From contig DATLFM010000024.1 of the NCBI GenBank assembly GCA_035541015.1, positions 1 to 48,434 of the forward strand: 48,434 nucleotides of DNA, read 5' to 3'. Origin of the DNA: Candidatus Thermoplasmatota archaeon (GTDB taxonomy: Archaea > Thermoplasmatota > SW-10-69-26 > JACQPN01 > JAIVGT01). Positions 1,823-21,780 of the stretch are shown in pieces. Made by a program: the position numbers and the translations under genes. Every line of letters starts with the position of its first letter. Within the stretch, counting starts at the first letter, position 1. A model generated the notes under the pieces. That model ran no database searches. It worked only from the letters and a program-made list of their open reading frames with translations, and was not told the origin of the DNA.

Positions 1823-3370
1823 TTACTGCGCAATTGCGCAGGAAACGTCCTGGCCGCCGGAAAGGACCCACGCGGCCCGCCGCTTTCCCTCCGACCGCGC
1901 GACGAGGCCTGCGCGCGCCATGCGGTGCAGGTGGTAGTGCGTGAGGTCCACGCGAAGGCCGGCCGTGCGCGCGATCTCCGTCGTCGTGCTTCCCGGCCGC
2001 TCGCCCACGAGGCGCGCGATGCGGCGCGCCGTCTCGGCGGAGGTCGCGTCGGCCGCCGCGACGTCCACGCGCGCCTCGGGCGGGAACCAGTAGATCGAGC
2101 GGCCGGCAAGCTGCGAGCGCAGGAGCCCTTCGCGCTCCAAGCGGACGAGGTGGTACCGCGCGGTCGTGAGGTCGACGGAAAACTCGCGGGCAAGGGCTGC
2201 GGCCGTCGTTCCGGGCGCGGCGCGCACGCGGTCGTAGAGGCGCCCGCGCAGGGGCTGTGCCAGCATGCGGTCGCGGGCGATGCGGCTGTAGAGCGCGATC
2301 GCAAGCAGCGGGAGCGCAAGCGCGGCGGCGAGCGCAAGCGACAGGGGCGACGCGCGCTCGGGCGTCACGCGCGAGGGGTCGATCGCCTCGGATCTTCCCG
2401 TCGCCGCGCGGGGCGCGGGAAGCTCGGGGGCCGGCGCCGTCGCGCGGACGTTTGCAAAACCGGGGGCAAGCGACGGAGCCCCGGGCAGGCGCGCGGGGGC
2501 GTCCTCGTCGGGCCGGGGCTGCGCTCGGTCGAGCGAGGGGGCGTGCGTTCCCTCGGGAGACGCGCCGGGATCGACGCCGGGTTCCGGCAACCGGACCTCG
2601 CCTTCAAGGCGCACGGGTGCGCCCAGCGGGGCGGGCGGCTCCGGCAACGCGATTGGGCCGGTGCCGACGCGGATCTCCACGCCTCCGACGGGGGGCGGCT
2701 CGATGCGGACGGAGGTCTCGCGTTGGATCGGAGGCGCGGCGAGTTGCGGGCGCGGCACGCGTTCGTGGTAGTTGTCAGCGGCCGCGCGCGCGTTGTCGAG
2801 GCCGCACCGGGTCCATCGTCCCGCGTCGATGAAGTACGACGTGCGGGCAAGGCAGTCGGAGACATCGTCGGCCTCCTCGACGGGACGCGGGGGGAGCGCC
2901 TCGGCCGCCGGGCGCGGGAGAAGCGGAGCCAGGTGGTCCCACAGCGCGCCGGCGGCGCCAGTCCATGCGCGAGCCTGCCGGAGGAAGTTCGCCGGGCAGA
3001 GCGGATCCGATCCGCACGGGTCGGCGGGCGTGAAGAAGCGTTCCGGATCGACGGGGTCGCGCGCGGGAACGCGCACGCGGGGAAGCTCGACGGCGGCAAG
3101 CGCAGCGAGGATCTCGAAGGCCGGCTCGAAGGGACGCAAGGACAACGGCTCCAGGACGACGGCAGGGGCCGTGAGGCTCGCCTCCACGGGCTCGACGGCG
3201 GGAATCTCAAGCGGCGCCGCGGCTTCGTGCGAGGCGTCGGCCAGCACGATCGACGCTCGGGCTCCTCGAAGGCCTGCCTCCGCTTCGAAGCCCACGGTCG
3301 TCGCGCCGGCGCATCCCGTCGTCACGAGAAGCACAAGGCACGCCATGGGCGCCACGTGGCGCACGCGCAC
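1823..3370 (-). CDS. Membrane-anchored tandem winged-helix regulator with secreted domain
   Basis: A 515-aa protein with an N-terminal signal and lipobox-like LVTTGCAG, a large extracytoplasmic region rich in Pro and Ala (about residues 25-335), one membrane helix at about 341-360 ([18 protein letters not shown]), then YSRI and two winged-helix domains at about 375-430 and 445-507. Both helices carry the RYHLVRLE / HYHLHRMA pattern of archaeal wHTH proteins. This is the layout of a one-component transmembrane transcription factor: an outside sensor, one helix and a cytoplasmic DNA-binding pair. Ligand and targets are unknown. The start is GTG at 3370 with GGGGAG just upstream; ATG at 3346 is an alternative. 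It is 48 nt downstream of a paralogue with the same plan. Confidence 0.8.
1826..1841. promoter_or_regulatory. Perfect 16-bp palindrome, possible operator
   Basis: CTGCGCAATTGCGCAG is a perfect palindrome lying over the last codons of the wHTH gene that ends at 1823 and facing the L15e promoter region. The same 7-bp arms with a 2-bp spacer recur at 36834-36855. It may be a regulator-binding site; as part of a coding sequence it could also be chance. Confidence 0.4.
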
Positions 3371-3418
3371 TCTCCCCGCCGCCAGGCGGCCTGGGGTCTC
3401 ATGAACCTTTTCCCGGCT

Positions 3419-4549
3419 TCATTCGAAAGCGCTAGGCGCGGGGTGCCAGTGCGCCCGGCCGTCGCCGCCGGACGCTCGGCGCACGAGGCCCGCCGATTCG
3501 AGGCGGTGCAAGTGGTAGTACACGGAGTCGAACGGCGCGGCCACGCTTCGGGCGATCTGCGCGCAGCCGGCGCCGGGCCGTTCGCGGACGGCGGCCTCGA
3601 TCCGCCGGGCCAAGGGGACGCGCACGGCCGAGAGACGGACCACGTCTGGCGCGCGGTCGGGAAGCGTCCAGAAGCCCGCGCCGGCGCCGGGAACGCGGCG
3701 AACGTACCCGCGGGCCTCCAGGCGCCGCAGGTGGTAGAGCACGGTCGTGAGGTGCGCCTGCAGCTCCTCTCCGAGGGCCGCCGCGGTGACCCCTTCGCGC
3801 GAGCCGACGGCCGCGTAGATGCGGGCGCGCAGCGAATGGTCGAGCTCCTTGCCGGGGCGGATGCGCGAGTAGAGCGCGTAGGCGAGAAGCGGGAGGGCCA
3901 GCAGACCCGCGAGCACGGCCGCGGGAATCTCGGGCAAGGCGGCGCGCGTCGGCGGTTGCGAGGCGACCACGGGGTGGACCTCACGCGGGAAAAGCGTTTC
4001 GCGCGCCGGTGGGGGCGGGGACGCCGGCGAGGCGGAGGGCGCGTCGACGTGGGGCGCGTTTGCCGAGCCGGTGGAGGGCGCGAGTTGGTCGCCGTGGATG
4101 GGCGTCGCGGGGCTGTCGTCCGCGGGCGCGGCGGGCGGGACGTCCGCCGGAACGGGCGCGGGGATTCCCGCCCGCGCGCGGCACGAGACCGTGAGGACGC
4201 CGACCTGGCCGCACTCGATCCGCAGGCGCGGGCGGCCGTCGGAGGCTCCATCGACGGAAACCCGAACGCCCGTCACGACCGAGGAGGTGGGCCGCGGCGG
4301 CCGGATCTCGTCGCTCACGTGGACGTCCGCCTCCACGGGGTCGGGCGCGGAAAAGGAGACGCCGCGCGATTCGGCGTCGCGAGGCACGTCGTCGCGGCGG
4401 GCGTTCGTTCCCAAGAGGATCGTGATCGAGCCGTCGCCGTTGTCCTCAAGACGCGGTTCGATGGATTCGTAGGAGTACGCGGCAAACGCCGGCGCGCCCG
4501 TGAGCGCGGCGACGAGGACGCCTAGAACGATCGTGCACCAGGTCCGCAC
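3419..4549 (-). CDS. Membrane-anchored tandem winged-helix regulator, paralogue of the next gene
   Basis: A 376-aa protein with a signal peptide (VLGVLVAALTGAPAFA), a short secreted beta-rich domain (about 25-125, including DNGDGSITILLGTN), a Pro/Ala linker, one membrane helix at about 206-226, the motif YSRI then LDH..R, and two winged-helix domains at about 240-295 and 310-372 (LYHLRRLEARGYVRR and YYHLHRLESAGLVRR). It has the same architecture as the downstream gene but a shorter ectodomain, so the pair probably arose by duplication and now senses different signals. It starts with GTG at 4549 behind GGGAGAG; a TATA-like box lies at 4581-4590. Function as a transmembrane regulator is inferred. 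Confidence 0.8.
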   Translation of the reverse strand: MRTWCTIVLGVLVAALTGAPAFAAYSYESIEPRLEDNGDGSITILLGTNARRDDVPRDAESRGVSFSAPDPVEADVHVSDEIRPPRPTSSVVTGVRVSVDGASDGRPRLRIECGQVGVLTVSCRARAGIPAPVPADVPPAAPADDSPATPIHGDQLAPSTGSANAPHVDAPSASPASPPPPARETLFPREVHPVVASQPPTRAALPEIPAAVLAGLLALPLLAYALYSRIRPGKELDHSLRARIYAAVGSREGVTAAALGEELQAHLTTVLYHLRRLEARGYVRRVPGAGAGFWTLPDRAPDVVRLSAVRVPLARRIEAAVRERPGAGCAQIARSVAAPFDSVYYHLHRLESAGLVRRASGGDGRAHWHPAPSAFE

Positions 4550-21110: not shown

Positions 21111-21656
21111 TTAACCGCCCGCCCTTCCAAGCACCTCGCGCGCCGTTTCGGTCGCGCGGTAGCGCTTGACGCGTCCCTCGCGCCAGGCCTCGACGAGGCC
21201 TTGCTTCTCGAGGATGTCGAGATGGTGCAGGGCGGTGGGCGGCGAAAGGCCGACCGCGGCGGCAAGCTCGGTTTGGCTTGCGCCCGCACGGGCGAAGATG
21301 CCGTGCAGGAGCGCCCGGCGGGAGGGTTCCCGGACCGCGACGATGGCCTTGGCAAGCGTGGGGGGGAAGTCTTTGGTGAAGTAGCGGCGGGTCTTGCCGT
21401 CGCGGACGAGGGAGACGAAGCCCTCGCGCGAGAGCTTCTCGAGATGCCAGGTGGTGGGCCCGTCGGCCAGGCGCACGGCGTCCTGCAGCTCCTTGAACGA
21501 GGTGCCCGGTTTGGCCGTGATCATGGAGAGCATGTCGTGCCGGGTCCCGTGGTCGAGCACCTGGATTCCCGTGATGCGGGAATACATGCCTTCCTTGGCA
21601 AGCTTCCGGGTCCCTCGGGGTTTGCGCGGCTTGGGCTTGGACGCCATGGATCGCAT
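21111..21656 (-). CDS. Soluble tandem winged-helix regulator
   Basis: A 181-aa cytoplasmic protein with a basic N-terminus (SKPKPRKPRGTRK), the motif MYSRI with a following LDHGTRH, and two winged-helix domains at about 45-100 (TTWHLEKLSREGFVSLV) and 115-170 (ALHHLDILEKQGLVEAW). The YSRI...LDH..R stretch matches the segment just after the membrane helix in the two membrane regulators at 1823-4549, so this looks like a version without sensor and anchor. The start is uncertain among ATG 21662, 21656 and 21647; an AATACTAC box about 27 nt upstream favours the first two. Targets are unknown. Confidence 0.78.
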   Translation of the reverse strand: MRSMASKPKPRKPRGTRKLAKEGMYSRITGIQVLDHGTRHDMLSMITAKPGTSFKELQDAVRLADGPTTWHLEKLSREGFVSLVRDGKTRRYFTKDFPPTLAKAIVAVREPSRRALLHGIFARAGASQTELAAAVGLSPPTALHHLDILEKQGLVEAWREGRVKRYRATETAREVLGRAGG

Positions 21657-21780
21657 ACGCATCCCTTGTCGTCCCCCAAGTAGTATTCCGTTTCGGGCGA
21701 ACCTATCAAATCCTCGCTTTTGGGCCTCCAAAGGGCGCAAGGCTCATGCCACGGGAGGGGCCCTCCTGGCGGGGGCTTGC

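What the first reader, a model, noticed from the sequence alone, without database searches (positions are those of the whole stretch)
1823..4549. Tandem transmembrane regulators that share a YSRI...LDH..R linker with a soluble regulator at 21111-21656
Seen: two neighbouring genes encode signal peptide, unlike secreted domains, one membrane helix and two winged helices, and both read (A)LYSRI right after the helix. The soluble protein at 21111-21656 has MYSRI with LDHGTRH at the same distance before its two winged helices; the 376-aa protein has YSRI with LDHSLRA. Known: archaeal one-component membrane regulators exist but most are uncharacterised. Inferred: one family with exchangeable sensors, in which the linker may pass the signal from the membrane to the DNA-binding pair, and from which soluble forms arise by loss of the sensor.
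Basis: partly seen in the sequence, partly recalled or inferred. Interest (0 to 1): 0.7.

Follow-up and report, generated by a model that had tools for sequence, protein, structure and literature searches.

The report
Large family of membrane-anchored archaeal regulators
Two neighbouring genes and one distant gene belong to a real and previously uncharacterised family of archaeal gene switches, about 47 of them membrane-anchored in this one small genome, that join very different outside-facing domains to the same inside DNA-binding pair through a short stretch of fixed length just under the membrane.

Summary
A515 (1823-3370, -) and B376 (3419-4549, -) each have a signal peptide, an unlike ectodomain, one strong membrane helix, YSRI and two winged helices. 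C209 (21111-21740, -) has YSRI at the same place but no membrane helix.

The motif is not chance. A matching motif occurs in 98 of 125 membrane-type relatives, 3 of 14 soluble ones (all C209 orthologs) and 1 of 562 control membrane segments. A motif-blind check in the window's genome gave 25/32 membrane and 1/10 soluble. Y to the conserved R is almost always 14 residues. LDH..R is not part of a special linker: it is helix 1 of an ArsR-type winged helix.

The 2.2-Mb genome holds 53 relatives, about 47 membrane-anchored; a published survey averaged 4 membrane regulators of any kind per archaeal genome. About 35 sit in a branch with only 2 of 30 members of the nearest genome. Ectodomains show no mutual similarity and no Pfam match; relatives carry beta-helix, Ig-like or CarboxypepD_reg domains on the same module.

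Exchangeable sensors are supported across the phylum; for A515/B376 fast divergence suffices. Soluble forms arising by sensor loss is not resolved. Signal passage through the linker is inferred, not shown.

The parts
3419..4549 (-). B376: signal peptide, short ectodomain, Pro/Ala-rich stalk, one membrane helix, YSRI, two winged helices
   Evidence: ORF and hydropathy; Pfam HTH_20 and HTH_HVO_0163_N above cut-off; AlphaFold model, membrane helix 209-228 in model numbering, ectodomain low confidence
1823..3370 (-). A515: signal peptide, unrelated long ectodomain, one membrane helix, YSRI, two winged helices; starts 48 bases after the B376 stop
   Evidence: ORF and hydropathy; Pfam; 46% identical to B376 over the shared C-terminal region; no ectodomain similarity to B376
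3860..3871 (-). YSRI codons of B376, residues 227-230
2279..2290 (-). YSRI codons of A515, residues 361-364
21111..21740 (-). C209: soluble tandem winged-helix protein with YSRI (the start codon is uncertain; 21656 is possible)
   Evidence: Pfam; AlphaFold mean pLDDT 91.8; orthologs in two other genomes of the class
21573..21584 (-). YSRI codons of C209, residues 53-56 of the 209-aa ORF

Best explanation
A515 and B376 are membrane-anchored one-component transcription regulators of a large archaeal family. The N-terminal part is exported and senses something outside the cell. A single membrane helix runs into a short cytosolic helical segment, typically [YF]-[STHA]-R-[ILV], that sits 14 residues before the conserved Arg of the first winged helix. 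Two ArsR-type winged helices then bind DNA from the membrane. The fixed register suggests that a movement or dimerisation of the membrane helix is passed directly to winged-helix 1. Shown: architecture, family, motif, spacing and predicted helicity. Inferred: topology, sensing, DNA binding and signal transfer. C209 is a soluble member that keeps the segment. The family has expanded strongly in this lineage.
For: Signal peptide plus strong membrane helix. Two winged helices. Motif in 98/125 membrane relatives versus 1/562 control segments, and motif-blind 25/32 versus 1/10. Y to R spacing of 14 in about 95 of 101 motif-bearing proteins. In the B376 model the membrane helix ends at YSR; in the C209 model YSRI lies in helix 16-33 just before winged-helix 1. 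The N-terminal parts of relatives carry typical extracellular domains: beta-helix, NEW3, Ig-like, CarboxypepD_reg. 53 relatives in the genome, about 47 of them membrane-type.
Against: No ligand, target gene or DNA site is known. The ectodomain of B376 is poorly modelled (pLDDT mostly 33-67). YSRI has lower confidence than the winged helices in the C209 model (residues 21-30 average 64). An aromatic residue followed by Arg just inside the membrane is also what a plain topology anchor would look like.
Confidence: 0.62

Rival explanations
1. The YSRI segment is only a membrane-interface anchor (aromatic belt plus positive-inside Arg) and the N-terminal cap of winged-helix 1; it fixes topology but carries no signal, and activity is set by dimerisation or ligand elsewhere.
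For: Position directly after the helix, aromatic Y/F first and R/K third; LDH..R aligns with helix 1 of ArsR/SmtB structures.
Against: A matching motif follows only 1 of 562 unrelated hydrophobic segments; the motif and its spacing persist in the soluble C209 orthologs of three genomes, where no membrane helix exists.
Confidence: 0.22
2. Regulated intramembrane proteolysis: the membrane helix is cut after ectodomain sensing and the tandem winged helices are released as a soluble regulator, C209 being a permanently free form.
For: Ala-rich helices; Pro in positions -9 to -4 before Y in 37 of 98 members against 115 of 562 controls in a comparable window; M50 (site-2 protease family) genes are present.
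Against: M50 proteases rang in all 14 control genomes, so presence says little. No cleavage site is known. The conserved 14-residue register after the membrane is not needed for release.
Confidence: 0.13
3. The shared motif and domains are convergent among generic winged-helix proteins rather than one family.
For: Winged helices are abundant and short motifs recur.
Against: Profile hits to E 1e-70 spanning the juxtamembrane segment and both winged helices, and matches in 148 of 194 phylum genomes at E 1e-12; fixed spacing; controls.
Confidence: 0.03

Closest known systems
Pfam PF24266 HTH_HVO_0163_N and PF12840 HTH_20 (ArsR-like winged helix)
   Same: All three proteins score above both cut-offs; PF24266 also rings in Haloferax volcanii, Methanocaldococcus jannaschii and Methanosarcina acetivorans.
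   Different: These models describe single DNA-binding domains; they do not describe the tandem pair, the juxtamembrane motif, the membrane helix or the exported domain.
Transmembrane transcription regulators (TTRs) as surveyed by Demey et al. 2023, PMC10269533
   Same: Predicted membrane region plus DNA-binding domain; single-pass forms are the commonest TTRs.
   Different: That survey found 4 +/- 2 TTRs per archaeal genome; here about 47 of one family sit in a 2.2-Mb genome. No motif or tandem winged-helix family of this kind appeared in the passages read.
ArnR/ArnR1 of Sulfolobus acidocaldarius (PMC6396743)
   Same: Archaeal membrane-bound one-component regulators with an HTH domain.
   Different: ArnR has an N-terminal HTH, a putative HAMP, an internal sensor and two C-terminal membrane helices: the reverse order, with no exported ectodomain.
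ToxR/CadC family (bacteria)
   Same: Single membrane helix joining an outside sensor to a cytosolic winged helix.
   Different: From general knowledge: a single N-terminal OmpR-type winged helix and a C-terminal periplasmic domain, the opposite polarity.
COG3398, predicted regulators with two HTH domains (name recalled, not tested)
   Same: Tandem HTH proteins of archaea.
   Different: Could not be tested here; no paper in the library mentions it.

Membership tests
Transmembrane transcription regulators (PMC10269533 definition) | Predicted transmembrane region | tested here: met
   Hydropathy 2.31 and 2.17 over 19 residues for A515 and B376; C209 fails this
Transmembrane transcription regulators (PMC10269533 definition) | Predicted DNA-binding domain | tested here: met
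   Two winged helices each
Pfam PF24266 HTH_HVO_0163_N | Score above the curated cut-off of 31 bits | tested here: met
   36.6, 36.5 and 49.3 bits for A515, B376, C209
ArsR/SmtB metalloregulators (NF033788) | Score above the curated cut-off of 55 bits | tested here: inconclusive
   C209 76 bits (above); A515 34.6 and B376 26.6 (below)
ArsR/SmtB metalloregulators (NF033788) | Cys-based metal site (ELCVCDL type) | tested here: not met
   C209 has no Cys at all (translation); other site types were not tested
ArnR-type regulators | N-terminal HTH, C-terminal membrane helices | tested here: not met
   Order is reversed: membrane helix before the C-terminal winged helices; ArnR layout from PMC6396743
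ToxR/CadC family | N-terminal cytosolic winged helix, C-terminal outside sensor | tested here: not met
   Signal peptide and exported part are N-terminal, winged helices C-terminal
COG3398 | Match to the COG profile | not testable with these tools
   COG profiles are not among the libraries

The most novel reading that the evidence does not exclude
This archaeal class uses a genome-wide array of tens of single-protein surface sensors, each with its own fast-changing ectodomain on one common chassis of membrane helix, YSRI segment and tandem winged helices, as its main way of coupling outside signals to transcription; the fixed 14-residue register is a general signal-coupling element of archaea, retained even in soluble members.
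Probability: 0.4. Interest if true: 0.75.

Novelty: new variant of a known kind. Interest (0 to 1): 0.58.

Why it matters
How archaea sense the outside and change transcription is poorly known, and very few membrane-bound archaeal regulators have been studied biochemically. Here one family supplies about 47 membrane-anchored candidates in a 2.2-Mb genome, roughly ten times the published average for all such regulators. A short motif defines most of them, and a simple spacing test could show whether signals pass through it. It also gives a recipe for finding such sensors across Thermoplasmatota; one haloarchaeal homologue shows the same spacing (SYSRY-x5-LENQVR).

Tried and rejected
LDH..R as half of a special linker: rejected, since the profile aligns with ArsR/SmtB chains from that point on and the model starts winged-helix 1 helix there. 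Sensor exchange between A515 and B376: not demonstrable, as ectodomains diverge too fast even between orthologs. Soluble forms as several independent losses: four changes on the tree, but one soluble clade is not rejected (p-AU 0.54), so left open. Profiles A1 and A2 were too diverse for the search for related loci; A3 gave seven loci. PDB fold search gave only single winged helices well superposed (ArsR types) and tandem winged-helix proteins of ScpB, SelB and RNA polymerase III type with poor superposition (rmsd about 8-16 A), so no solved structure of the pair was found. Literature searches for the family name or motif returned nothing specific.

Full report
What was checked. The window (48,434 bases, 70% G+C) is contig 24 of a 2.2-Mb draft genome. 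Its class also contains the genome of 'Thermoplasmatales archaeon SW_10_69_26': genome G005 contig 25 and record PXUB01000025.1 have the same length and match. The host is therefore an uncultured archaeon of that Thermoplasmatota class. Only seven genomes of the class are held.

The three proteins. B376 (3419-4549) and A515 (1823-3370) lie in tandem on the minus strand, with 48 bases between the B376 stop and the A515 start. Each begins with a hydrophobic signal-peptide-like stretch, has one strong membrane helix (mean hydropathy 2.17 and 2.31) and ends with two winged helices above the Pfam cut-offs of HTH_20 and HTH_HVO_0163_N. YSRI starts at the cytosolic end of the helix. C209 (21111-21740) has the same YSRI and the same two winged helices but no hydrophobic segment. 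YSRI occurs nowhere else in the six-frame translation of the window.

A large family in one genome. A BLAST search with the B376 C-terminal region found 53 places in the genome, of which about 47 encode membrane-type proteins and most begin with a signal peptide. Demey et al. 2023 (PMC10269533) counted 4 +/- 2 membrane regulators of all kinds per archaeal genome. A profile (A1) finds 20 to 69 matches in each of the seven genomes of the class and 0 to 24 in 34 other genomes of the phylum; 148 of 194 phylum genomes have at least one match at E 1e-12. In a tree of this genome and its nearest relative (another genus of the same family, 76% complete), 35 of 54 members sit in one branch with only 2 of the 30 from the relative. 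This indicates expansion in the window's lineage; support is moderate (93, many open forks).

The motif is real. Among 125 membrane-type relatives 98 have [YF][STHRANVQ][RK][ILMVF] right after the helix; among 14 soluble relatives 3 do, all of them C209 or its orthologs; among 562 hydrophobic segments in unrelated open frames 1 does. Because the profile itself contains the motif, the test was repeated with PF24266 hits, a winged-helix model that does not see the motif: 25 of 32 membrane and 1 of 10 soluble proteins have it. The distance from Y to the conserved R of winged-helix 1 is 14 residues in 93 of 101 by script and in two more by eye. Some membrane members carry variants such as PLASRL or LLHRL, and a subfamily has GGxKFVT instead.

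What the two halves of the motif are. LDH..R is the beginning of an ArsR-type winged helix: profile matches to SmtB, CadC and relatives begin there, and the C209 model starts winged-helix 1 helix 37-48 right after it. A515 has MLAQPLR there. YSRI is different: in the B376 model the membrane helix (209-228) ends at YSR, and in the C209 model (mean pLDDT 91.8) YSRI lies inside helix 16-33, with lower confidence (residues 21-30 average 64). The segment is thus a cytosolic continuation of the membrane helix, held at constant distance from winged-helix 1.

Sensors. The 45 N-terminal parts tested in this genome show no mutual BLAST similarity at E 1e-3, and none of 43 matches Pfam at E 0.01. In relatives the same module carries a right-handed beta-helix with an Ig domain (L114), CarboxypepD_reg repeats (L081), Ig-like and NEW3 domains (L131). 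This supports an outside location and shows that unrelated ectodomains are used. Yet orthologs whose regulators are 73-81% identical have ectodomains only 30-34% identical, so for A515/B376 fast divergence explains the unlike ectodomains as well as exchange does.

The soluble form. C209 has orthologs in G001 (same gene neighbourhood: an ABC-transporter ATPase and a small protein ending in GGVGFIFG) and G005, both with a short basic N-terminus followed by GYARI or GLYARV at the same spacing. The free tree puts this group among membrane forms with support 80-93, but one clade of all soluble forms is not rejected (p-AU 0.54). Sensor loss is therefore plausible but not shown. Retention of the motif without a membrane suggests that it has a role in the DNA-binding half too.

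Mechanism. Most likely these are single-protein sensors: an outside signal changes the state of the membrane helix, and the fixed-register helical segment passes this to winged-helix 1 (inferred). Rivals are a passive interface anchor and proteolytic release; neither is excluded.

Known or new. The domain is in Pfam and membrane regulators of archaea are known; ArnR has the opposite order. No paper found in the searches describes this family, its motif or its expansion. A haloarchaeal plasmid protein, annotated only as a winged helix-turn-helix regulator, has a signal-peptide-like N-terminus and SYSRY-x5-LENQVR with the same 14-residue spacing, so the motif reaches beyond the phylum. It is filed as a new variant of a known kind.

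Noticed in passing
window 1826-1841, overlapping the stop codon of A515: Perfect palindrome CTGCGCAATTGCGCAG, usually extended to TTAC...GTAA or TTCC...GGAA, occurs 18 times in this genome and not in six other genomes of the class; several copies lie just after gene ends, and the last residues of A515 (CAIAQ) are read from it. A terminator, binding site or mobile palindrome are all possible.
   Followed up: partly
L039, L096, L097, L168: A membrane subfamily with GGxKFVT instead of YSRI, in several genomes as two adjacent genes conserved across the class; an alternative juxtamembrane segment at the same place.
   Followed up: partly
L064 (G000 contig 52, 3935-8693): Four family genes in a row, three membrane-type and one soluble without the motif; one of several local clusters.
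   Followed up: partly
window 1823-4549: Both ectodomains contain paired cysteines (A515 PCGSDPLC and [19 protein letters not shown]376 ECGQVGVLTVSC), candidates for disulfide bonds outside the cell.
   Followed up: no
   Followed up: partly
L124 1432-2010: The C209 ortholog of G005 starts MKLIRRFRKWLSRLTSEGLYARV, a basic amphipathic-looking helix, so the soluble form may still touch the membrane surface.
   Followed up: no
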